Below, piece by piece: positions 429-29,675 of a DNA stretch of 64,000 nt. The notes under the pieces were generated by a model. That model worked only from the letters and a program-made list of their open reading frames with translations. It ran no database searches and was not told the DNA's origin. The stretch comes from Paucihalobacter ruber (GTDB lineage Bacteria; Bacteroidota; Bacteroidia; Flavobacteriales; Flavobacteriaceae). Location of the stretch: assembly GCF_006494535.1 (NCBI RefSeq), contig NZ_VHIQ01000005.1:248001-312000 (forward strand), in the 5' to 3' direction. Both the position numbers and the translations under genes were made by a program. The stretch's first letter is position 1, and every line of letters begins with the position of its first letter.

Positions 429-471
429 TGATTTATATCATTTAGCGCGAGGAATCTTTCAGATACTTTTG
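429..471 (+). promoter_or_regulatory. hemN promoter with CRP/FNR-type box
   Basis: A palindrome TGAT-TTAT-ATCA at 429-440 (centre 434.5) matches the CRP/FNR-family site TGAT-N4-ATCA. A perfect Bacteroidota -7 element TACTTTTG (TAnnTTTG) lies at 464-471. If transcription starts about 12 nt after the first base of the -7 element (near 476), the box sits near -41.5, the class II activator position. The same 29.5-nt spacing recurs at three other promoters in this window. Confidence 0.75.
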
Positions 472-488
472 TATTAATTAAAAGAATC

Positions 489-1853
489 ATGAACAAATCT
501 CTTGTTAATAAATATAATGTTGCAGGCCCAAGATACACCAGTTACCCAACGGTGCCGTTTTGGGACGAAGACATATTTAACATTGATGATTACCAAGAAT
601 CACTTGTTGATTCTTTTATTAAAAGTAATCAAAAAGAAGGAATTAGTTTATACATTCATTTACCATTTTGCGAGCAGTTATGCACGTTTTGCGGTTGCAA
701 CAAACGCATTACAAAACGTCATGAGGTTGAAGTGCCTTACATTGAAACCCTTTTAAAAGAGTGGCAACTATACTTAAATATCCTGCCCCAAAGACCTGTT
801 ATTAAGGAAATACATCTGGGTGGTGGCACTCCTACGTTTTTTGCTCCGAATCAACTTTCTAGATTGATTAATAGCATAGTGAGCAGTGCTTCGCTCGCAG
901 ATGGTTATGAGTTTAGTTTTGAAGGTCACCCTAATAATACCACTAAGGAGCATTTGCAAACTTTGTTCGATTTAGGATTTAAACGCGTTAGTTTTGGGGT
1001 TCAGGATTATAATTTGCTGGTACAAAAAGCCATTCACAGAATTCAACCTTTTGAAAATGTTAAAAAGGTAACAGAATTGGCCAGAAGTATTGGCTATACT
1101 TCGGTTGGACACGACTTAATTTTTGGATTGCCGTTTCAAACTGAGGCCGATGTGATTCAAACCATCAAACACACCCAAGAATTAAAACCAGACCGAATTG
1201 CTTTCTACAGTTATGCCCATGTGCCATGGATTAAAGGCAATGGTCAGCGTGGCTTTAAAGATTCAGATTTACCATCTGCCGAAAGTAAACGCATGCAATA
1301 CCAAAATGGTAAGCAACTACTCGAAGATATTGGTTATGTTGAAATTGGTATGGATCATTTCGCCTTAAAAACTGATAGTTTATTTCTGGCTGATGAAAAC
1401 AAGCAATTGCATAGAAATTTCATGGGTTACACTGCCTCTAAAACAACTGTGATGATTGGCTTAGGTGTTTCTTCGATAAGCGATTGCTGGACAGGCTTTG
1501 CACAGAACGAAAAAAATCTTGAAGATTATCAGGAACGCGTTCAAAATGATGAATTACCTATTTTCAGAGGTCATTTATTGAATTCTGAAGATGTTATTAT
1601 AAGACAGCACATCTTAAATTTAATGTGCAAATTTGAAACGTATTGGGAGCATCCATCGTTGAATTTTAAAGAAGTGGCAGATGTTTTGATTGCATTAAAA
1701 ACTTTTGAGGAAGATGGTTTAATCACCACACAAAAAAATGGCGTGGTGGTACACCCCAAAGGAAGACCGTTCATTAGGAATATTTGTATGGCTTTTGATC
1801 TGAGATTACAGCGTAAAAAGCCCGATACGCAATTATTTTCAATGACTATTTAA
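489..1853 (+). CDS. hemN: Oxygen-independent coproporphyrinogen III oxidase
   Basis: A radical SAM enzyme of heme synthesis that decarboxylates coproporphyrinogen III to protoporphyrinogen IX without oxygen, in the cytoplasm. The 454-residue length matches the family (about 457 in E. coli). The cluster motif CEQLCTFCGC gives C61, C65, C68 for the SAM-bound 4Fe-4S cluster plus C70, the CX3CX2CXC form of true HemN rather than HemW. The N-terminal GPRYTSYPTVPFW, the GGGTPTF motif and a C-terminal HemN domain are present. ATG start 18 nt after the -7 element. A CRP/FNR-type promoter upstream fits oxygen-limited expression, supplying heme to the cbb3 oxidase and cytochromes encoded nearby. The downstream UspA gene, 55 nt on, has no promoter I can see and is probably cotranscribed. 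Confidence 0.96.
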   Translation: MNKSLVNKYNVAGPRYTSYPTVPFWDEDIFNIDDYQESLVDSFIKSNQKEGISLYIHLPFCEQLCTFCGCNKRITKRHEVEVPYIETLLKEWQLYLNILPQRPVIKEIHLGGGTPTFFAPNQLSRLINSIVSSASLADGYEFSFEGHPNNTTKEHLQTLFDLGFKRVSFGVQDYNLLVQKAIHRIQPFENVKKVTELARSIGYTSVGHDLIFGLPFQTEADVIQTIKHTQELKPDRIAFYSYAHVPWIKGNGQRGFKDSDLPSAESKRMQYQNGKQLLEDIGYVEIGMDHFALKTDSLFLADENKQLHRNFMGYTASKTTVMIGLGVSSISDCWTGFAQNEKNLEDYQERVQNDELPIFRGHLLNSEDVIIRQHILNLMCKFETYWEHPSLNFKEVADVLIALKTFEEDGLITTQKNGVVVHPKGRPFIRNICMAFDLRLQRKKPDTQLFSMTI

Positions 1854-3288: not shown

Positions 3289-3331
3289 TGATAATAATCA
3301 TATTCTAAGAATGTAACACATGTTACTTTTG
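3289..3331 (+). promoter_or_regulatory. nos operon promoter: CRP/FNR-type box plus overlapping second palindrome
   Basis: TGAT-AATA-ATCA at 3289-3300 (centre 3294.5) lies within the longer palindrome ATATGAT-N4-ATCATAT (3286-3303 core). The -7 element TACTTTTG is at 3324-3331, exactly 29.5 nt from the box centre. A second perfect inverted repeat, GTAACA-CA-TGTTAC, occupies 3313-3326, between the box and the -7 and overlapping its first bases, a position suited to a repressor. Confidence 0.78.
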
Positions 3332-3362: not shown

Positions 3363-3848
3363 ATGAGAACACTAACAATTTTAATCACCTTTTTAGTCGT
3401 CACCTTGGTAGGATGTTCTGAAAAAGAGGACAAAACCAGATCCAGAACGGCATACGCAAAAAAAACAACTGAGGCCCCGGCTAAAAAGGCTGAGCCGGCA
3501 TCTAAAAGAATAGATTTAACCAATAAGGGAATTGGTCCAATTACAGACATTACTTTAGAAGATGCCATCAATCAGGATTTAGCCGCACATGGCGCCGATG
3601 TTTATCAAAAAATGTGTACTGCATGCCATAAGGTTGAGAAAAAACATATCGGGCCTTCACCAAAAGGTATTTTAGAAAGAAGAACACCGGAGTGGGTAAT
3701 GAATATGATTTTAAACCCTGAACAAATGGTAAAAGAAGATCAGTTAGCTAAAGATCTTTTAATTGAGTTTAATGGCTCTCCTATGGCTAACCAAAATCTT
3801 ACCGAAGAAGATGCACGCGCTGTACTTGAGTATTTTAGAACATTATAA
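3363..3848 (+). CDS. Monoheme c-type cytochrome lipoprotein, first gene of nos operon
   Basis: A 161-residue exported lipoprotein (lipobox LVGC at C18) with a low-complexity Lys/Ala/Pro linker and a C-terminal class I cytochrome c domain. The heme is bound at C85-T-A-C88-H89; M141 in GSPMANQ is the likely sixth ligand. As the first gene of the operon, 84 nt before the fasciclin gene, it probably passes electrons from the quinol-oxidising chain to NosZ. Clade II nos clusters commonly carry such cytochromes, in place of the NosR route. Expression would be from the CRP/FNR-type promoter immediately upstream. The electron-donor role is inferred from context; the cytochrome call is direct. Confidence 0.9.
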   Translation: MRTLTILITFLVVTLVGCSEKEDKTRSRTAYAKKTTEAPAKKAEPASKRIDLTNKGIGPITDITLEDAINQDLAAHGADVYQKMCTACHKVEKKHIGPSPKGILERRTPEWVMNMILNPEQMVKEDQLAKDLLIEFNGSPMANQNLTEEDARAVLEYFRTL

Positions 3849-4533: not shown

Positions 4534-6486
4534 ATGAAAACAATAAAAAATATCTTTTTACTTACAGCTGTAGCCGGTTTAATACTAAGCTGCGGCAATA
4601 ATAATGGCGGTAAATCAGGGGCGATGGCTTCTAGTAACGCCGAAAAAGTTTACGTAGCTCCGGGTGAGCACGACGAGTACTATGCTTTTATGTCTGGTGG
4701 TTATAGCGGTAATGTTACTGTTTATGGTTTGCCCAGCGGAAGAATGTTCAAAGAAATTCCGGTGTTCTCACAGTTTCCAACTTCAGGATATGGTTATTCT
4801 GAAGAAACAAAGCCTATGTTTAATACCTCTTTCGGGTTCGTGCCTTGGGGTGATGCACACCATCCGGATATTTCTCAAACTAATGGTGAATTAGATGGTA
4901 GATGGCTATTTATAAACGAAAACAATACACCGCGTATTGCTCGAATTAGTCTAGCTACTTTTGAAACAGAAGAAATTATAGAAATACCACATAGCGCCGG
5001 AAACCACGCTTCATCTTTTGTAACCGAAAATACAGAATATATAGTTGCCGGTACCAGATTTGCAGTGCCTAATCCGCAAAGAGATATGCCAATTAGTGAA
5101 ATGAAAGGTGAGTTTAAAGGTCCACTAACTTTTATTGCCATAGACGATAGCGGGCATATGAAAATTGATTTTCAATTAAATATGCCTGGTTTTAACTATG
5201 ATTTAGCGCATCCTGGAAGAAATAAATCGCATGGTTGGTTCTTTTTTACAAGTTATAATACAGAAGAAGCTAATACACTTCTTGAAGTTAATGCTTCTCA
5301 AAATGATAAAGATTATATTGTTGCCGTAAACTGGCAAAAATTAGCAGAGTTTGTAGCTAATGGCGGTGGCAAAAAAGTTCCGGCTACCTATGCGCATAAC
5401 GTATACGATGAAAAAACTCATACAGCTACATCAACTATGATGGAAGGTGTAACTTCAATAGATCCTAGAGAAGTTGAAGGTGCTGTTTACTATATTCCAA
5501 TTCCAAAAAGTCCGCACGGTTGTGATGTGGATCCATCGGGAGAATATATTATTGGTAGTGGGAAACTTTCTACTGACTTAAGTATTTATTCATTCACCAA
5601 AATTCAAGAAGCAATAGCGAATAAGGATTACGAAGGTGATGCTTATGGAATTCCGGTTTTGAATTATGAGAATACTTTAGCCGGTGTTGTTACACAAGCA
5701 GGTTTAGGTCCTTTACATACAGAATTTGATGGCAGAGGCAATGCTTATACAACTTTCTTTATTTCATCTGAGGTTGTAAAATGGAAATTAGAAACTTGGG
5801 AAGTAGTTGATAGACAACCAACTTATTATTCTGTTGGTCACTTGATGATTCCTGGCGGAAACTCTAGAACACCTGATGCTAAGTACTTGGTAGCCATGAA
5901 CAAGATAACAAAAGACCGTTATTTGCCAACTGGTCCGGAACTAGAACACTCTGCACAATTGTACGACATTACAGGCGATAAAATGGAATTACTTTACGAT
6001 TTCCCTACGCACGGTGAGCCCCATTATGCTGCAGGTATCGCTGCCAGCAAAATAAAAGATAATGTTAAGAAATATTATGATTTAGAGGAAAACAATCACC
6101 CTTATGTTGCTAAAAGTGAAAGCGAAACAAAAGTGGTTAGAAACGGAAACGAAGTTCATGTATATATGACCATGATTAGAAGTCACTTCTCTCCGGATAA
6201 TATTGAAGGTATTAAAGTAGGCGATAAAGTGTATTTCCACATTACCAACCTTGAACAAGATTTTGATGTACCCCACGGTTTCTCAATGATTGGTGCCAAT
6301 ACATCAGAACTACTTATTATGCCGGGTCAAACCAAAACCAGTATCTGGGAACCAAAGCGCGAAGGTGTCTGGCCATTTTACTGTACCGATTTCTGCTCAG
6401 CTTTACACCAAGAAATGCAAGGTTATGTGAGAGTATCGGCAAAAAATTCTGATACCGAATTAAAATGGTCTTTAGACGATGAATAG
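4534..6486 (+). CDS. nosZ: Nitrous-oxide reductase, clade II (Sec-type)
   Basis: A 650-residue copper enzyme reducing N2O to N2 on the outer face of the cytoplasmic membrane. The N-terminal seven-bladed propeller carries the CuZ ligands, seen as DAHHPD, AGNHAS, SPHGCDV, GPLHTEF, VGHLMIP and HGEPH. The C-terminal cupredoxin domain holds CuA: H581 in DVPHGF, then C617-T-D-F-C621-S-A-L-H625-Q-E-M628. The leader is a Sec signal without a twin-arginine motif, which places it in clade II, and it ends in a lipobox (ILSC, C20), so the enzyme is predicted to be lipid-anchored rather than soluble. No nir or nor genes occur in the window, so the organism may consume N2O without complete denitrification. 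A hairpin follows the stop codon. Confidence 0.97.
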   Translation: MKTIKNIFLLTAVAGLILSCGNNNGGKSGAMASSNAEKVYVAPGEHDEYYAFMSGGYSGNVTVYGLPSGRMFKEIPVFSQFPTSGYGYSEETKPMFNTSFGFVPWGDAHHPDISQTNGELDGRWLFINENNTPRIARISLATFETEEIIEIPHSAGNHASSFVTENTEYIVAGTRFAVPNPQRDMPISEMKGEFKGPLTFIAIDDSGHMKIDFQLNMPGFNYDLAHPGRNKSHGWFFFTSYNTEEANTLLEVNASQNDKDYIVAVNWQKLAEFVANGGGKKVPATYAHNVYDEKTHTATSTMMEGVTSIDPREVEGAVYYIPIPKSPHGCDVDPSGEYIIGSGKLSTDLSIYSFTKIQEAIANKDYEGDAYGIPVLNYENTLAGVVTQAGLGPLHTEFDGRGNAYTTFFISSEVVKWKLETWEVVDRQPTYYSVGHLMIPGGNSRTPDAKYLVAMNKITKDRYLPTGPELEHSAQLYDITGDKMELLYDFPTHGEPHYAAGIAASKIKDNVKKYYDLEENNHPYVAKSESETKVVRNGNEVHVYMTMIRSHFSPDNIEGIKVGDKVYFHITNLEQDFDVPHGFSMIGANTSELLIMPGQTKTSIWEPKREGVWPFYCTDFCSALHQEMQGYVRVSAKNSDTELKWSLDDE

Positions 6487-6534
6487 TTAGAGAGTTATAA
6501 AATTAGTTATTAGTGTTATTGATATTATAGCTCA

Positions 6535-6564
6535 GGGCGAGCGAGATAGTTCGTTCGCCCTTTT
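6535..6564 (+). terminator. Hairpin with T-tract inside the nos operon, after nosZ
   Basis: GGGCGAGCGA (6535-6544) pairs with TCGTTCGCCC (6551-6560) around a 6-nt loop with one G.U pair, followed by TTTT and, after CTTGTCA, another T-run. It is the strongest hairpin in the nos region. Because nosLDFY are needed for NosZ assembly it is probably a partial terminator or a 3' stabiliser for nosZ mRNA. Confidence 0.75.
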
Positions 6565-6645
6565 CTTGTCATTTTTTAAGCATTTTTTACACTAACCAAT
6601 AGACCATAATACTGCTTTAAAAAAATAAAACTTAAATTGAAACTA

Positions 6646-7251
6646 ATGAAATCAGCTAGTATTTTAATGATTGTCGGTTCAGCGTTATTACTGGGATTAT
6701 TTATATTTCCGCTTTGGAATATAGTTCTGGAAGCCCCACAATATCCCGACGGCATTGGTATGAATATTCATATTGATGGATTGCAAGGAAGAGACAAACA
6801 CGATTTGCAAAACATTGATGGCTTAAACCATTATATTGGCATGAGAAAGCTGCCAAAGGCAAATGAAATGTGGGAGTTTTCTACCTTTCCGTTGGTAATT
6901 GGCGGAATGGCTGCCTTAGGAATTTTAATAGGCATCCTTGGATTTTTCAAAGTTTTGAATTACAAATGGTTTTTAGCATGGCTAATTTTAATGACCGTTT
7001 TAGGAATATTAGGAATGTACGACTTTAACGCTTGGATGGTAGATTACGGTACCAATCTAGATCCTAAGGCCATTATGAAAATGACCGATGCTGATGGCAA
7101 TCCGTTAAGTTACAAACCACCATTATTTGGAACTAAAGATATATTGAATTTTAGAGCACATTCTTATCCAAGCTTAGGTGCTTATTTAATGGGATTGGGA
7201 ATGTTTTTAACTTTCGTTGCCTTTTGGTTAGGTAAAAAGAAAACCACTTAA
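6646..7251 (+). CDS. NosB-like membrane protein of clade II nos cluster
   Basis: A 201-residue membrane protein with four hydrophobic segments (about residues 5-25, 80-103, 106-125 and 175-195) and two exported loops; the first is rich in His, Asp and Gly. An in-frame TTG at 6637 precedes the ATG at 6646; I chose the ATG. A membrane protein between nosZ and the nosL/D genes is a hallmark of clade II nos clusters (NosB in Wolinella), and position and topology fit. Sequence identity to NosB was not tested. Function unknown; a role in electron transfer or assembly is usually suggested. It follows the hairpin after nosZ and starts 15 nt before nosL. Confidence 0.7.
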   Translation: MKSASILMIVGSALLLGLFIFPLWNIVLEAPQYPDGIGMNIHIDGLQGRDKHDLQNIDGLNHYIGMRKLPKANEMWEFSTFPLVIGGMAALGILIGILGFFKVLNYKWFLAWLILMTVLGILGMYDFNAWMVDYGTNLDPKAIMKMTDADGNPLSYKPPLFGTKDILNFRAHSYPSLGAYLMGLGMFLTFVAFWLGKKKTT

Positions 7252-24745: not shown

Positions 24746-26935
24746 TTAGTTTTGAGCGGTTTTACTTTCAGTATCCGGTGTTTTTATATCGGTTCCTAAT
24801 CGTTGTAAATAAGCAATTAGTGCCACGATTTCTCTGTTTTTCATTTCAACAAAGTCTTCACCTCCTGCGGCTTTATCAGCTTCGTAATTGGCTGCAAAAT
24901 CAGGATCTGTGTAAAGGTTTTGTTCAATTTGAGTACCTTGCTCAAGCATATGTGCTTGTGCATTGGCAATTTCTTCTTCGGTATATGGTACACCTAATTT
25001 CACCATCACCTCCATTTTTTTCTCTGTTTGAGATTTATCCAATTCATCGGTTATAAGCCATTGATAGGCTGGCATAATAGACTCGTTATTCATGGCTTGC
25101 GGATCGTACATGTGGTTAAAGTGCCAGCTGTCGTTGTACTTACCGCCAATTCGGTGTAAGTCTGGTCCGGTACGCTTACTTCCCCAAAGGAATGGGTGAT
25201 CATAAACAAATTCGCCTGCTTTAGAGTATTCACCATAACGCTCAACCTCGCTTCTAAATGGTCTAATCATTTGAGAGTGGCAACCCACGCAGCCTTCACG
25301 TATGTATAGGTCTCTACCTTCAAGTTCAAGAGGTGTGTATGGTTTTACACTGCTAATGGTTGGAATATTAGATTCTACCACTAATGTTGGAATAATTTGA
25401 ACAATACCACCAATTAAAATGGCTATGGTAGCATAGATGGTTAAGAGTATAGGTTTACGCTCTAACCATGTGTGCCAGCCTTCGCCGGCAACTCTACTTT
25501 TGGAAACACGCTGTAGGGCAGGAGCTTCGGCTAATTCGTCGGTAACGGCACTACCATTTTTAATGGTAAGAATGATATTGTAAACCAACACTAACATACC
25601 GGTTACATACAAGGTGCCACCAATGGCGCGCATCCAGTACATTGGCATAATTTCGGTAACGGTGTATAAAAAGTTACCGTATACTAAAGTACCATCAGGA
25701 TTGAAGTCTTTCCATAAACTGGCTTGTGTAAAACCTGCAACGTACAGCGGTAAGGCATACAGAATAATCCCTAGAGTACCAATCCAGAAATGGAAATTGG
25801 CCAATCCGATAGAATGCAATTTGGTTTTAAATAATCTGGGGATTAACCAGTAAATCATACCAAAGGCCAGAAAGCCGTTCCACGCTAAGGCACCAACGTG
25901 TACGTGTGCAATAATCCAGTCCGTAAAGTGCGCAATGGCATTGACGTTTTTAAGAGATAGCATCGGACCTTCAAAAGTGGCCATACCATAACCGGTAATG
26001 GCTACTACCATAAATTTTAAAACGGGATCCACACGAACTTTATCCCAGGCACCGCGTAGGGTTAATAAACCGTTAATCATACCACCCCAAGATGGTGCAA
26101 TTAACATTACCGAGAACGCCACACCTAAGTGTTGTGCCCATTCGGGTAAAGCGGTGTAAAGTAAATGGTGAGGACCAGCCCAGATGTATATAAATATCAG
26201 CGACCAGAAATGCACAATAGACAAACGATAGGAGTATACCGGTCTGTTAGCCGCTTTAGGCACAAAGTAATACATTAAACCCAAAAATGGTGTAGTTAGG
26301 AAAAATGCCACGGCATTATGTCCGTACCACCATTGCACTAAGGCGTCTTGTACACCGGCATAAACCGAGTAGCTCTTTAAGCCACTTACCGGTAATGCTA
26401 AACTATTAAAAATGTGTAATACAGCTACGGTTACAAAAGTGGCGATGTAAAACCAGATGGCCACATATAAGTGACGTTGACGACGTTTTAATATGGTGCC
26501 TATCATGTTAACCCCAAAAGCAACCCAAATAAGAGCGATGGCAATATCAAAAGGCCACTCAAGTTCAGCGTATTCTTTAGAAGATGTGAAACCGAGCGGT
26601 AGTGTCAATGCAGCACCTACGATAATGAGCTGCCAACCCCAAAAGTTTATGCTACTCAACAAATCGCTGTACATACGCGCTTTGAGTAATCTTTGCAATG
26701 AGTAGTAAACCCCTGCAAAAATGGCATTACCAACAAAGGCAAAAATTACCGCATTGGTGTGTAATGGTCTCAATCGGCCAAAGCTAAGCCAAGAAACGCC
26801 ATCGGTTAGATTGGGAAACAAAAACAGGAATGCCAGTAAAAGTCCTACCAGCATACCTACAACTCCCCAAAGAATGGTGGCGTATAAAAAATTCTTTACG
26901 ATTTTGTTATCGTAGTAAAATTGCTGCATTTCCAT
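24746..26935 (-). CDS. ccoN: cbb3 cytochrome oxidase fused subunits I and II (CcoN-CcoO)
   Basis: A 729-residue fusion of the catalytic subunit CcoN (about 1-470) and the monoheme subunit CcoO (about 490-729), as usual in Bacteroidota. Heme and CuB ligands are readable in CcoN: RLRPLHTNAVIF (low-spin heme), WWYGHNAV and AGPHHLLY (CuB), and IAHVHVG (His pair for the two hemes). CcoO has a linking helix (about 497-520), then C549-V-G-C552-H553 and GPDLHRIGGKY. This oxidase reduces O2 at low concentration and pumps protons. It follows ccoS by 11 nt and is expressed from the CRP/FNR-type promoter ahead of ccoS. Confidence 0.97.
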   Translation of the reverse strand: MEMQQFYYDNKIVKNFLYATILWGVVGMLVGLLLAFLFLFPNLTDGVSWLSFGRLRPLHTNAVIFAFVGNAIFAGVYYSLQRLLKARMYSDLLSSINFWGWQLIIVGAALTLPLGFTSSKEYAELEWPFDIAIALIWVAFGVNMIGTILKRRQRHLYVAIWFYIATFVTVAVLHIFNSLALPVSGLKSYSVYAGVQDALVQWWYGHNAVAFFLTTPFLGLMYYFVPKAANRPVYSYRLSIVHFWSLIFIYIWAGPHHLLYTALPEWAQHLGVAFSVMLIAPSWGGMINGLLTLRGAWDKVRVDPVLKFMVVAITGYGMATFEGPMLSLKNVNAIAHFTDWIIAHVHVGALAWNGFLAFGMIYWLIPRLFKTKLHSIGLANFHFWIGTLGIILYALPLYVAGFTQASLWKDFNPDGTLVYGNFLYTVTEIMPMYWMRAIGGTLYVTGMLVLVYNIILTIKNGSAVTDELAEAPALQRVSKSRVAGEGWHTWLERKPILLTIYATIAILIGGIVQIIPTLVVESNIPTISSVKPYTPLELEGRDLYIREGCVGCHSQMIRPFRSEVERYGEYSKAGEFVYDHPFLWGSKRTGPDLHRIGGKYNDSWHFNHMYDPQAMNNESIMPAYQWLITDELDKSQTEKKMEVMVKLGVPYTEEEIANAQAHMLEQGTQIEQNLYTDPDFAANYEADKAAGGEDFVEMKNREIVALIAYLQRLGTDIKTPDTESKTAQN

Positions 26936-26946
26936 ATTTTATATAA

Positions 26947-27138
26947 TTAGTCTGTTTTGGTTATTATTTTTGATGATTCTTTTGTTTTCTTTTTGACCAC
27001 TTCATCTTCAAACAGCATTCTTACCGATGGCGTATAACTATCGTCGTACTGACCCTTTCTCACTGCTATAACAAAAGCCGCAAAAAAGAAAATGGCCACA
27101 ACAACACTTACTGCCAATAAAATATAAATAACACTCAT
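26947..27138 (-). CDS. ccoS: CcoS cbb3 oxidase assembly protein
   Basis: A 63-residue protein with one membrane helix. The start MSVIYILLAVSVVVAIFFF (ATG at 27138) is the conserved family start; an upstream in-frame TTG (27159) lies in the promoter and is rejected. The tail GQYDDSYTPSVRMLFEDE is typical. It is required for maturation of cbb3 oxidases. It leads the ccoS-ccoNO-ccoQ-ccoP operon. Confidence 0.92.
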   Translation of the reverse strand: MSVIYILLAVSVVVAIFFFAAFVIAVRKGQYDDSYTPSVRMLFEDEVVKKKTKESSKIITKTD

Positions 27139-27156: not shown

Positions 27157-27199
27157 CAAAAATAGTTTTGATGTAAGCTTCGCAAAATGATAATGGTCA
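27157..27199 (-). promoter_or_regulatory. ccoS-ccoNO promoter with CRP/FNR-type box
   Basis: On the minus strand TGAC-CATT-ATCA (27199-27188, centre 27193.5) is followed by the perfect -7 element TATTTTTG (27164-27157). The distance from centre to first -7 base is 29.5 nt, identical to hemN and nos. The element lies in the 73-nt gap between the ccoI stop and ccoS, so the oxidase genes can be made independently of ccoI. Confidence 0.75.
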
Positions 27200-27211: not shown

Positions 27212-29605
27212 TTATATCGTTTTTATGGCGTCTGTTTTTAATTTCTTTCCAACAATATTCGTGCAAACCGTTGTAAATGCAACGATAGTAATAGAACTCA
27301 ATGGCATTAAAATAGCGGCAATTACCGGTGATAATTGTCCGGTTACTGCAAAATACAATCCCACGGCATTGTACATAAACGAGAGTACAAAAGCCCATTT
27401 AATAATTTTAATGGCTTGTTGACTCATGTTGAAATAGCCGTGTAATTGGTTAAATTTACTCGCATCTAAAATGGCATCGCAAGCCGGAGAAAACACATTG
27501 ACATTTTCTGAAATGGCAATACCAACATCGCTTTGTGCCAGTGCGCCGGCATCGTTTAAGCCATCGCCAATCATAGCAATGGTTTGTCCTTCGCTTTGAT
27601 GATAGGCAATGTATTGTAACTTGTCGTCTGGTTTTTGATTGAATAGGAGCTTGGTTTTTGGCGGTAACAATTTTTGAAGGTTCTCGATTTCGCCTTCATT
27701 GTCACCCGATAAGATGGTTAAATCAAACTTTGATTTAAGTTGATTGAACAGCTTTGAAAGTCCTTTGCGGTATTGGTTGTAAAAGGTGAATTTTCCTTTG
27801 TAGGCATTATTACTGCTCACATGAACTGTGGTGTTAAGCACCGAAGTGTCTTCGCTACCTACATACGAAGCCGAACCGATTTTAATCTCGTTATTAGCGT
27901 GTTTGGCCGAAATACCTTTGCCAATATCTTCTCGATAGTCGTCTAAGGTGATGATGTTTTCAGATTGAAGCAGGTTGTATAAGCTTCTGCTTAAAGGGTG
28001 ATTTGAATTGCGAAGTGAACTTCTTAATAAGTTAGATTCATCTTCGTTTAAAGGCATGCCTTCATAAGTGGCTTCAGCAGATGCATTGGAGGTGATGGTG
28101 CCCGTTTTATCGAAAATAATGCTGTCGATTTTTGCCATGCGTTCTATAACCGAAGCATTTTTTAAATAGAATTTATCCTTTCCAAAAATGCGCAACACAT
28201 TGCCTAAGGTGAATGGTGCCGCCAGAGCGATGGCACACGGACAAGCAATGATCAATACTGCGGTAAACACGTTCATGGCTTTACCTGGGTCTGCAAATAG
28301 CCAATAAGTGGTGGCAATTACGGCGATGCTTAATACATATATGGTAAACTGTTTACTAATGCTGTTGGTAAGTGTTGTAAACCCGCTTTCTTTGTTTTTG
28401 GCGAATACATCATTGCTCCATAATTGGGTAAGGTAGCTTTGCTCAACGGCTTTTAGGGCTTCCATTTCGATGCTGCCCTGAGTTTGTTTACCGCCTGCAA
28501 AGAGTTTATCGCCCGACTGTTTTCTCACCACGCGCGATTCGCCGGTTACAAAGCTGTAGTCTAAATGCGCTTTACCACTAATTAAAATGCCGTCAACCGG
28601 AATTAACTCCTGATTTCTTATCAGCAAACGGTCACCTTCTTTAATGTCGTAAACCTGAATGGGTATTTCGGTTCGATCTTTACTAATTTTGGTAACGGCA
28701 ATAGGGAAGTAACTCTTGTAATTGCGTTCGAATGATAAAAAGGAATAAGTTTTCTGCTGAAAGAATTTACCAAGCAATAAAAAGAAGATCAATCCTGTAA
28801 AACTGTCAAAAAAGCCGGAACCTAAATCGAAAGCAATTTCGATGGTACTTCTAAAAAACAAGACGAAGGCACCGAGCGCAATAGGCACATCGATATTTAA
28901 AATTTTAGCGCGTAATCCTTTATAAGCCGAAATAAAATAATCTTGTGCTGCATATAGTAACACAGGCACAGAATAAGCAAACATCAACCATCTAAACAAA
29001 TGTTTGTATTGGTCTAGCCAGTATTCATCGACTTCAAAGTACTCCGGAAACGATAAAAACATCACATTCCCGAAGGCAAATCCAGCCACGCCTAATTTAT
29101 AGATGAGCGACCTGTTAACTTGTTGTGCGCTTTTACCAAAATCGTCTAAGCTAATGTAAGGTTCGTAACCAATATTACTGAGTAATATAACCACTTGCTT
29201 TAAATTGGTGGCTTGCGGATTGTAGCTAACCCTGACGGTTTTTTTATTAAAATTCACCTGAGATTCGGTGATACCCGGTTGTAGTTTATTGAGGTTTTCC
29301 AGCACCCAAATACAGGCACTACAATGTATATGTGGAATGTATAAAGTGGCAATTTCAAGCGTTTCGTCTCTAAATTCTAAGAGTTTATTTAAGATGTTGT
29401 CTTGCGCCAAAAAATCGAACTTACCTTCAATATCCTGAGGTGTTGCGCCGGGCGCTTGCTGCATATCGTAATAGCAACTTAAGTCGTTTTCAGAGAAAAT
29501 TTCGTAAACTGTTTTGCAGCCATTGCAGCAAAATGACTTGTCGTCATACTGAATGCTGTCTTCTTTACACGCATCGCCACAGTGATAACACGTTGATGTA
29601 CTCAT
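27212..29605 (-). CDS. ccoI: CcoI-type copper-translocating P-type ATPase
   Basis: A 797-residue copper P1B-type ATPase that supplies copper for cbb3 oxidase assembly. The N-terminus has a Cys-rich metal finger (CYHCGDAC, then FCCNGC), then a heavy-metal domain with C95-S-A-C98. Catalytic motifs: TGES in the actuator domain, C455-P-C457 in the membrane, phosphorylated D499 in DKTGT and GDGLNDAGALAQSDVGIA. The N-terminal finger plus heavy-metal domain is characteristic of FixI/CcoI rather than CopA. It has its own CRP/FNR-type promoter and is followed by a second one before ccoS. Confidence 0.95.
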   Translation of the reverse strand: MSTSTCYHCGDACKEDSIQYDDKSFCCNGCKTVYEIFSENDLSCYYDMQQAPGATPQDIEGKFDFLAQDNILNKLLEFRDETLEIATLYIPHIHCSACIWVLENLNKLQPGITESQVNFNKKTVRVSYNPQATNLKQVVILLSNIGYEPYISLDDFGKSAQQVNRSLIYKLGVAGFAFGNVMFLSFPEYFEVDEYWLDQYKHLFRWLMFAYSVPVLLYAAQDYFISAYKGLRAKILNIDVPIALGAFVLFFRSTIEIAFDLGSGFFDSFTGLIFFLLLGKFFQQKTYSFLSFERNYKSYFPIAVTKISKDRTEIPIQVYDIKEGDRLLIRNQELIPVDGILISGKAHLDYSFVTGESRVVRKQSGDKLFAGGKQTQGSIEMEALKAVEQSYLTQLWSNDVFAKNKESGFTTLTNSISKQFTIYVLSIAVIATTYWLFADPGKAMNVFTAVLIIACPCAIALAAPFTLGNVLRIFGKDKFYLKNASVIERMAKIDSIIFDKTGTITSNASAEATYEGMPLNEDESNLLRSSLRNSNHPLSRSLYNLLQSENIITLDDYREDIGKGISAKHANNEIKIGSASYVGSEDTSVLNTTVHVSSNNAYKGKFTFYNQYRKGLSKLFNQLKSKFDLTILSGDNEGEIENLQKLLPPKTKLLFNQKPDDKLQYIAYHQSEGQTIAMIGDGLNDAGALAQSDVGIAISENVNVFSPACDAILDASKFNQLHGYFNMSQQAIKIIKWAFVLSFMYNAVGLYFAVTGQLSPVIAAILMPLSSITIVAFTTVCTNIVGKKLKTDAIKTI

Positions 29606-29632: not shown

Positions 29633-29675
29633 CAAAGATGGGTAGCTCATATTTTTTAAACTATGATTTTGGTCA
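29633..29675 (-). promoter_or_regulatory. ccoI promoter with CRP/FNR-type box
   Basis: On the minus strand TGAC-CAAA-ATCA (29675-29664, centre 29669.5) is followed by CATCTTTG (29640-29633), one mismatch from TAnnTTTG. The spacing is again 29.5 nt. The expected start site near 29628 is about 23 nt before the ccoI ATG. Confidence 0.68.

What the first reader, a model, noticed from the sequence alone, without database searches (positions are those of the whole stretch)
429..471. Shared fixed-geometry CRP/FNR-type promoter, first seen at hemN
TGATTTATATCA (centre 434.5) lies exactly 29.5 nt before the first base of the -7 element TACTTTTG. The same distance recurs to the half-base at three other promoters in the window (first nos gene, ccoI, ccoS-ccoNO), all genes of low-oxygen or N-oxide respiration. 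Four identical spacings with palindromes of one family argue for one CRP/FNR-type activator acting at about -41.5 in the Bacteroidota promoter context. The regulator itself is not in the window.
Basis: partly seen in the sequence, partly recalled or inferred. Interest (0 to 1): 0.8.

Follow-up and report, generated by a model that had tools for sequence, protein, structure and literature searches.

The report
Low-oxygen promoter code in Bacteroidota
Four low-oxygen respiration genes in this bacterium share one exact promoter layout that recurs across its genome and its relatives, probably switched on by a fused regulator paired with a kinase that resembles a haem oxygen sensor.

Summary
Palindromes TGAY-N4-RTCA lie exactly 29.5 nt before the -7 element at hemN, the nos cytochrome gene, ccoS-ccoNO and ccoI (the ccoI -7 is off-consensus, CATCTTTG). 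Genome-wide the strict motif occurs 16 times at this spacing and 13 times over 30 other spacings; all 16 are intergenic. In 296 Bacteroidia genomes there are 1042 hits, against about 101 per other spacing. In Flavobacterium the -7 box spans -12 to -5 (PMC9723704), so the centre is at -41.5, the class II CRP/FNR position. The best regulator candidate lies outside the window: a receiver-CRP fusion behind a FixL-like PAS kinase, whose FixL-type haem-ligand histidine is kept in 76 of 78 sequences. Eighty loci around this fusion in relatives hold 139 sites at this spacing and 21 at the other 30. Many genomes without it have stand-alone FNR-type proteins; where neither was found the motif thins to 0.25 per Mb. 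I read this as FixJ and FixK in one protein, feeding a promoter code used across the class. Binding, haem and activation are not shown.

The parts
429..440 (+). activator palindrome TGATTTATATCA of the hemN promoter, centre 434.5
464..471 (+). -7 element TACTTTTG of the hemN promoter, first base 29.5 nt from palindrome centre
489..1853 (+). hemN, oxygen-independent coproporphyrinogen III oxidase (TIGR00538, 454 bits, cut-off 325)
3289..3300 (+). activator palindrome TGATAATAATCA of the nos promoter
3324..3331 (+). -7 element TACTTTTG of the nos promoter
3363..3848 (+). cytochrome c gene at the head of the nos genes (NosZ at 4534-6486, Sec-dependent type TIGR04246)
27188..27199 (-). activator palindrome TGACCATTATCA of the ccoS-ccoNO promoter
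27157..27164 (-). -7 element TATTTTTG of the ccoS-ccoNO promoter
26947..27138 (-). ccoS-like small ORF (63 aa), named by position and look; no family search of it
24746..26935 (-). ccoNO, fused cbb3 oxidase subunits I/II (NF011053, 1344 bits, cut-off 1080)
29664..29675 (-). activator palindrome TGACCAAAATCA of the ccoI promoter
29633..29640 (-). off-consensus -7 element CATCTTTG of the ccoI promoter, same spacing
27212..29605 (-). ccoI, heavy-metal P-type ATPase (Pfam E1-E2_ATPase, HMA; the name ccoI rests on its place beside ccoS-ccoNO)

Best explanation
The four window promoters are class II-type activator promoters of the Bacteroidota housekeeping sigma factor. A CRP/FNR-family dimer binds TGAY-N4-RTCA centred at -41.5, over the place of the -33 element, and recruits polymerase to TAnnTTT(G/A). 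In this genome the dimer is most likely the receiver-cNMP-HTH_Crp fusion in the open frame G000:C14:426107-427204 (minus). It would be phosphorylated by the PAS histidine kinase encoded just upstream (C14:427200-428450), whose PAS domain resembles the haem-PAS of FixL. Low oxygen would activate the kinase, the fusion would bind, and cbb3 oxidase, its metal ATPase, anaerobic haem synthesis, N2O reduction, fermentation and stress genes would rise. In effect FixJ's receiver and FixK's DNA-binding output sit in one protein. Shown: geometry, its enrichment, gene content, co-occurrence with the regulators, conservation of key residues. Inferred: binding, phosphotransfer, haem and oxygen sensing, activation.
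For: Geometry: 16 strict N23 matches against 13 over 30 other spacings in the genome, 16 of 16 intergenic. 296 genomes, own included: 1042 at N23, 3039 over the other 30 spacings, about 101 each. -7 box at -12 to -5 in F. psychrophilum. Regulator: only 2 HTH_Crp_2 proteins in the genome; only the fusion has both the Glu and the Arg of an FNR-like recognition helix, and both are invariant in 21 aligned fusions (the meaning of these residues is recalled). A strict site lies 3' of the fusion gene, before a Usp gene. Twelve fusion neighbourhoods not chosen for their sites: 10 N23 matches, 1 at the other 30 spacings (5 of the 10 from one genome). 80 loci of relatives: 139 and 21, with 77 of 80 loci holding an N23 site. 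Density per Mb: fusion plus clear FNR type 1.99 (39 genomes), fusion without clear FNR type 0.94 (104), FNR type only 1.04 (83), neither 0.25 (70); other-spacing background 0.096. Footprints, one -7 mismatch allowed: ccoS 21 of 22, ccoI 21 of 25, hemN 5 of 12 homologue starts; nosZ, no mismatch, 9 of 30 loci, own included. Usp homologue starts 139 of 223. Kinase: PAS matches FixL 1d06 at 7e-15; kinase ORF upstream in 77 of 80 loci; ligand-position His in 76 of 78 and in 18 of 18 PAS-bearing kinases of a wider set.
Against: The motif is not exclusive to genomes with the fusion: 0.71 hits per Mb in the 153 without it. FNR-type proteins account for most of that, but 50 hits remain in 70 genomes scored as having neither. 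Hits are counted in related genomes, so the P values overstate independence. The site precedes nosZ in only 9 of 30 loci and hemN in 5 of 12; with no -7 mismatch allowed beyond TAnnTTT(G/A), ccoI has 1 of 24 and hemN 4 of 12. In the one-mismatch footprint of ccoS another spacing, N36, also recurs (13 counts). Seven of the 12 fusion neighbourhoods have no strict site within about 10 kb. No site lies within 450 bases of the fusion's own start in 100 of 100 loci. The FixL match is by sequence only; at the position of FixL's distal Arg (recalled) the wider set has Arg in 4 and Met in 8 of 18 kinases (by eye). P0002 was not tested for co-occurrence. No binding, expression or haem data exist here.
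Confidence: 0.78

Rival explanations
1. Same class II promoters, but the activator in this genome is the other CRP-like protein (P0002, C14:151230-151862, 210 aa), or one of three more cNMP-domain proteins, with the fusion acting elsewhere.
For: Three strict sites flank P0002, including a palindrome serving two divergent promoters. All three are of TGAC..GTCA type, which could mark a second regulator.
Against: Its recognition helix has Val where FNR-type proteins have Glu (residue meaning recalled). The three further cNMP proteins gave no HTH_Crp_2 match and, by eye, none has the Glu. Sites cluster at the fusion in 80 loci of relatives. P0002 was not tested for co-occurrence.
Confidence: 0.12
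2. The palindrome is a repressor site, with the regulator blocking the -33 region until oxygen falls.
For: The site overlaps the -33 region; CRP/FNR proteins can repress (recalled).
Against: A repressor does not need one exact spacing: in the 80 loci the -7 at up to one mismatch gives 335 at N23 and 2-22 at each other spacing. The -7 elements are often off-consensus: TTTG 139, TTTA 127, TTTC 5, TTTT 1, and ccoI lacks the first T in 21 of 21 N23 cases, as expected of activator-dependent promoters.
Confidence: 0.06
3. The geometry is a by-product of base composition or of a repeated DNA element.
For: AT-rich genome; some -7 matches occur by chance at all spacings.
Against: All spacing controls share the composition; N23 stands out about tenfold over 296 genomes. 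The bases between palindrome and -7 are mostly not conserved, apart from a T-rich stretch at -33 to -30, and all 139 sites in the 80 loci differ in sequence, which is against a copied element.
Confidence: 0.02

Closest known systems
FixLJ-FixK2 cascade of Bradyrhizobium diazoefficiens
   Same: Haem-PAS kinase, receiver domain, CRP/FNR-type activator; hemN and nos genes are in the FixK2-box set (PMC6710368, passages). FixK2 also drives cbb3 oxidase genes (recalled).
   Different: There FixJ switches on transcription of a separate fixK2 gene. Here the receiver and the CRP output are one protein. NCBIfam FixK model 66.9 bits, cut-off 300. Promoter is TAnnTTTG, not a proteobacterial -10.
Fe-S FNR and Anr type regulators
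   Same: Similar half-site TGAT, same Glu/Arg recognition-helix pattern, class II position, anaerobic regulon (half-site and position of FNR recalled).
   Different: The fusion has no N-terminal cysteine cluster and is below the NCBIfam FNR cut-off, 86.6 against 228. Stand-alone cysteine-bearing proteins of this type do occur in other Bacteroidia.
HcpR of Bacteroides and Porphyromonas
   Same: CRP-family activator in Bacteroidota acting at a promoter with a -7 element (PMC13370916, passages).
   Different: Haem-binding nitrosative-stress regulator of hcp; no receiver domain is mentioned in the passages seen; I did not compare its site or spacing.
Class II CRP-dependent promoters of Escherichia coli
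   Same: Activator centred at -41.5, 29.5 nt before the first base of the -10 hexamer (recalled).
   Different: Different core promoter; here -5 may be G or A, and the promoter-side flank T at -35 is nearly fixed, 0.98 of 139 sites.

Membership tests
class II CRP/FNR-dependent promoter | activator site centred at -41.5 | tested here: met
   29.5 nt to the first -7 base in 4 of 4 window promoters; -7 box spans -12 to -5 in F. psychrophilum. Start sites of this genome not mapped.
class II CRP/FNR-dependent promoter | transcription depends on the bound activator | not testable with these tools
   needs mutants or in vitro transcription
CRP/FNR regulator superfamily (fusion protein) | cNMP-like domain followed by HTH_Crp_2 | tested here: met
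   PF00027 68.5 bits (cut-off 27.5) and PF13545 56.3 bits (cut-off 27)
two-component response regulator (fusion protein) | receiver domain with conserved phospho-acceptor region | tested here: met
   PF00072 103 bits over 111 of 111 positions; Asp of CDxMMP and the Lys of TKP invariant in 21 aligned proteins
FNR (oxygen-sensing Fe-S) | N-terminal cysteine cluster | tested here: not met
   the only invariant Cys column in 21 fusions is in the receiver; one other column has Cys in 4; NCBIfam FNR 86.6 of 228 bits
FixK | member of the curated FixK model, free-standing protein | tested here: not met
   66.9 of 300 bits; receiver fused at the N terminus
FixL (upstream kinase) | PAS domain of FixL type with proximal His ligand | tested here: met
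   phmmer to 1d06 at 7e-15 with His on His; that FixL His has Ile at +15 and +16, as His194 with Ile209 and Ile210 in PMC10765370; His in 76 of 78 kinases
FixL (upstream kinase) | binds haem and is inhibited by oxygen | not testable with these tools
   needs spectra and kinase assays
CRP (cAMP receptor) | binds cAMP | not tested
   no cAMP-pocket comparison was made

The most novel reading that the evidence does not exclude
Bacteroidia use one fixed promoter geometry as a common socket for low-oxygen control, into which two different sensors plug: a stand-alone cysteine-bearing FNR type, and a FixL-like haem kinase paired with a single protein that fuses FixJ's receiver to FixK's output. Genomes keep either or both, and where both are lost the socket fades towards background.
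Probability: 0.6. Interest if true: 0.77.

Novelty: new variant of a known kind. Interest (0 to 1): 0.64.

Why it matters
Low-oxygen control in Bacteroidota seems thinly described in what I could search: a 2021 metagenome study predicted that Flavobacteriales CRP/FNR homologues sense carbon (PMC8510549, passages), and the F. psychrophilum transcriptome paper reports cbb3 and haem genes rising under oxygen limitation while the words Crp and Fnr do not occur in its main text (PMC9723704). A half-base-exact promoter rule with a kinase-regulator pair would let anyone list candidate hypoxic genes of such a genome from sequence, including N2O reductase, which matters for greenhouse gas budgets. It would also be a natural case of a two-step cascade shortened to one protein.

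Tried and rejected
Stand-alone FNR as the activator in this genome: rejected. The FNR-type query's best hit here is 7e-32 (its place is not listed), the genome has only two HTH_Crp_2 proteins, and neither shows the N-terminal CxxC. The fusion as the sole user of the motif: rejected, since genomes scored as lacking it hold 338 of the 1042 hits. The reversed-pattern control (29 hits) was judged too lenient, because it changes base order, and was replaced by the free-spacing control. Palindrome count alone as evidence: only marginal. Autoregulation of the kinase-regulator genes: weak; a one-mismatch site precedes the run of minus-strand genes that ends with kinase and fusion (C14:429846-429888), but only 10 of 108 kinase-homologue starts and 0 of 100 fusion starts have a site within 450 bases.

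Literature: nine searches were answered; no title or abstract start listed was about a receiver-CRP fusion or this geometry in Bacteroidota. The library holds open-licence papers only, so absence from print is not claimed. Six papers were seen as passages only; all others as search listings.

Limits of counts. Protein searches scored at most 6 and 9 candidates in nearly all genomes. The fusion was called present at E of 1e-60 or better; G054 and G142 lie between the two groups and were counted as lacking it, though G054 holds a piece very like the fusion (L092). The FNR-type class inside fusion-bearing genomes rests on a rough cut at 1e-53, because fusions reach 1e-51 in that search; cysteines were looked at in 12 genomes only. 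Of the 20 neighbourhoods, eight were chosen because sites had been seen near them and are counted apart (12 at N23, 3 at other spacings); of the other twelve, the sites of one (G227) were already listed, and hit totals of all were known. In one search hits were dropped if they began after query residue 40, fell below identity or coverage limits, or lay within 450 bases of a locus edge. The 30 nosZ loci are the best 30 of 106 genomes with a match. Of the 32 one-mismatch sites, genes after 15 were family-searched or known. Some of the 80 loci come from one genome twice.

Full report
Observation. I re-read all four promoters. The palindrome centre lies 29.5 nt before the first -7 base at hemN (429-440/464), the nos cytochrome c gene (3289-3300/3324), ccoS-ccoNO (27188-27199/27164, minus) and ccoI (29664-29675/29640, minus). 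The first three have TAnnTTTG; ccoI has CATCTTTG. HemN, NosZ and CcoNO are over their NCBIfam cut-offs; ccoI is a heavy-metal P-type ATPase by Pfam.

Genome test. The window is C15:248001-312000 of a 3.54 Mb genome. The strict pattern at this spacing has 16 matches, the pattern read backwards none. With the gap free from 8 to 38 there are 29 matches: 16 at N23, at most 2 at any other spacing. All 16 are intergenic, and 14 of 16 have a same-strand ORF starting within 81 nt of the first -7 base. With one mismatch there are 48 matches against 9 for the reversed pattern, many of the new ones ending TTTA. First genes after the 16 sites: formate-THF ligase, three pyridine-nucleotide oxidoreductases (one of them 295 nt on, behind a 55-aa ORF), a thioredoxin, ribosome hibernation S30AE, an unknown 126-aa protein, peroxiredoxin, pyruvate formate-lyase, pyruvate kinase, Usp, hemN, nos cytochrome c, ccoS, a CBS/cNMP nucleotidyltransferase with carboxylase genes behind it, and an AMP-binding ligase. 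The 32 one-mismatch sites include ccoI; family searches after 14 others gave a second Usp, two CBS-domain proteins, PPDK, PEPCK and a YceI protein, but also WbqC, a TonB receptor, DUF proteins and four unknowns.

Class test. In 296 Bacteroidia genomes, own included, the N23 pattern has 1042 hits in 238 genomes. The free-gap search has 4081, leaving 3039 for 30 other spacings, about 101 each, so N23 is tenfold enriched. In F. psychrophilum the -7 box spans -12 to -5 (PMC9723704, passages), which puts the centre at -41.5.

Regulator. The genome has two HTH_Crp_2 proteins. One is a receiver-cNMP-HTH_Crp fusion (365-aa open frame, receiver 103 bits) that follows a PAS histidine kinase; the open frames adjoin, and a strict site lies between the fusion gene and a Usp gene. 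A full-length fusion is found in 143 of 296 genomes, with a gap in the E-values between 1e-45 and 1e-67. N23 hits are 1.21 per Mb with it and 0.71 without. I then looked at the 12 genomes with 7 or more hits that were scored as lacking the fusion. The top CRP-type protein carries a CxxC near the N terminus in 10 of 12; of the other two, G054 holds a piece like the fusion and G254's has no such cysteines. In 4 of the 30 CRP loci fetched a site lies 22-64 nt after the regulator's stop. With that FNR type scored too, the densities are 1.99 (39 genomes: both), 0.94 (104: fusion, no clear FNR type), 1.04 (83: FNR type only, E 1e-40 or better) and 0.25 (70: neither) per Mb, against 0.096 per other spacing. 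These genomes are related, so this is correlation, not proof.

Neighbourhoods. Twelve 20-kb fusion neighbourhoods not chosen for their sites hold 10 N23 matches and 1 at all other spacings; 7 of the 12 hold none and 5 of the 10 matches are in one genome. Eighty loci of titled records, mostly Flavobacteriaceae, 1.30 Mb in all, hold 139 N23 matches and 21 at the other 30 spacings; 77 of 80 loci have one, and 66 of 80 have one just 3' of the fusion gene. Allowing one -7 mismatch gives 335 at N23 and 2-22 at each other spacing. Homologue starts with an N23 site within 350 bases, one mismatch to TAnnTTT(G/A) allowed: ccoS 21 of 22, ccoI 21 of 25, hemN 5 of 12; at ccoS one other spacing (N36) also recurs, 13 counts. 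For nosZ 9 of 30 loci, own included, have a site upstream, and 1 match lies at another spacing.

Sensor. The kinase PAS matches FixL (1d06, 7e-15) and DosP in solved structures, with its His64 aligned to a FixL His. FixL's proximal ligand is His194 in S. meliloti, with Ile209 and Ile210 over the haem (PMC10765370, passage). The FixL His in the alignment has Ile at +15 and +16, which fits His194. A kinase ORF lies directly upstream in 77 of 80 loci (two of the three misses are at contig starts). His is kept in 76 of 78 aligned kinases, and the Arg 20 residues on, FixL's distal Arg by recall, in 69 of 78. In the 20 class loci the kinase is in place in 19, one of which lacks this PAS; His is kept in 18 of 18, but at the Arg position 4 have Arg and 8 have Met (by eye).

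Mechanism. The fusion has the Glu and Arg of an FNR-type recognition helix, invariant in 21 aligned fusions, and no Fe-S cysteine cluster. I infer: falling oxygen frees the kinase haem, the kinase phosphorylates the receiver, the fused CRP part binds at -41.5 and activates. In Bradyrhizobium the same tasks need FixL, FixJ and a separately transcribed FixK2, with hemN and nos genes in the FixK2-box set (PMC6710368, passages). The variable -7 elements (TTTG 139, TTTA 127) and the near-fixed promoter-side T at -35 (0.98, against A 0.60 at -48) fit activator-dependent promoters in which the inner half-site abuts the -33 region. In a more mixed set of 68 sites the same bias is weaker, 0.75 against 0.49.

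An unexpected detail. At ccoI the first -7 base is not T in any of the 21 N23 cases among 25 homologues: G 10, A 6, C 5. Two more have T but at N22; one has no palindrome and one does not fit. Usp has T in 74 of 74 and ccoS in 19 of 20 N23 cases. The window's CATCTTTG fits this pattern, so ccoI looks held weak by selection, though these loci are related.

Verdict. Nothing here shows binding, haem, phosphorylation or activation.

Noticed in passing
window 29633-29640 and ccoI homologues among L073-L091 and L152-L231: The -7 element of ccoI lacks the first T in 21 of 21 N23 cases (G 10, A 6, C 5), while Usp and ccoS keep it; it looks like a conserved weakening of this promoter.
   Followed up: partly
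L036 8277-8350 (C14:150276-150349); L054 3624-3697 (C1:319123-319196): One palindrome serves two divergent promoters, with a -7 element at N23 on both sides (in the second pair both end TTTA). In 80 loci of relatives 7 of 418 palindromes are double.
   Followed up: partly
L040 6726-6768 and ORF 4837-6720 (C16:244719-244767): The start codon of the CBS/cNMP nucleotidyltransferase gene lies 6 nt after the -7 element, so the predicted mRNA is almost leaderless.
   Followed up: no
L039 9108-10205 minus (C14:426107-427204): The fusion gene has no ATG at its natural start; alignment suggests a TTG start. ATG-only gene calling cuts off about half the receiver.
   Followed up: partly
L036 9231-10963 (C14:151230-152962): A second CRP-like gene is followed by a cytochrome c-like protein with a Tll0287-like domain, and three strict sites lie around them.
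   Followed up: no
L092 (G054 C1:1599614-1599832): A CRP piece very like the fusion, with a site 22 nt after its stop, but in a 232-aa frame: perhaps a broken or frameshifted fusion gene.
   Followed up: no
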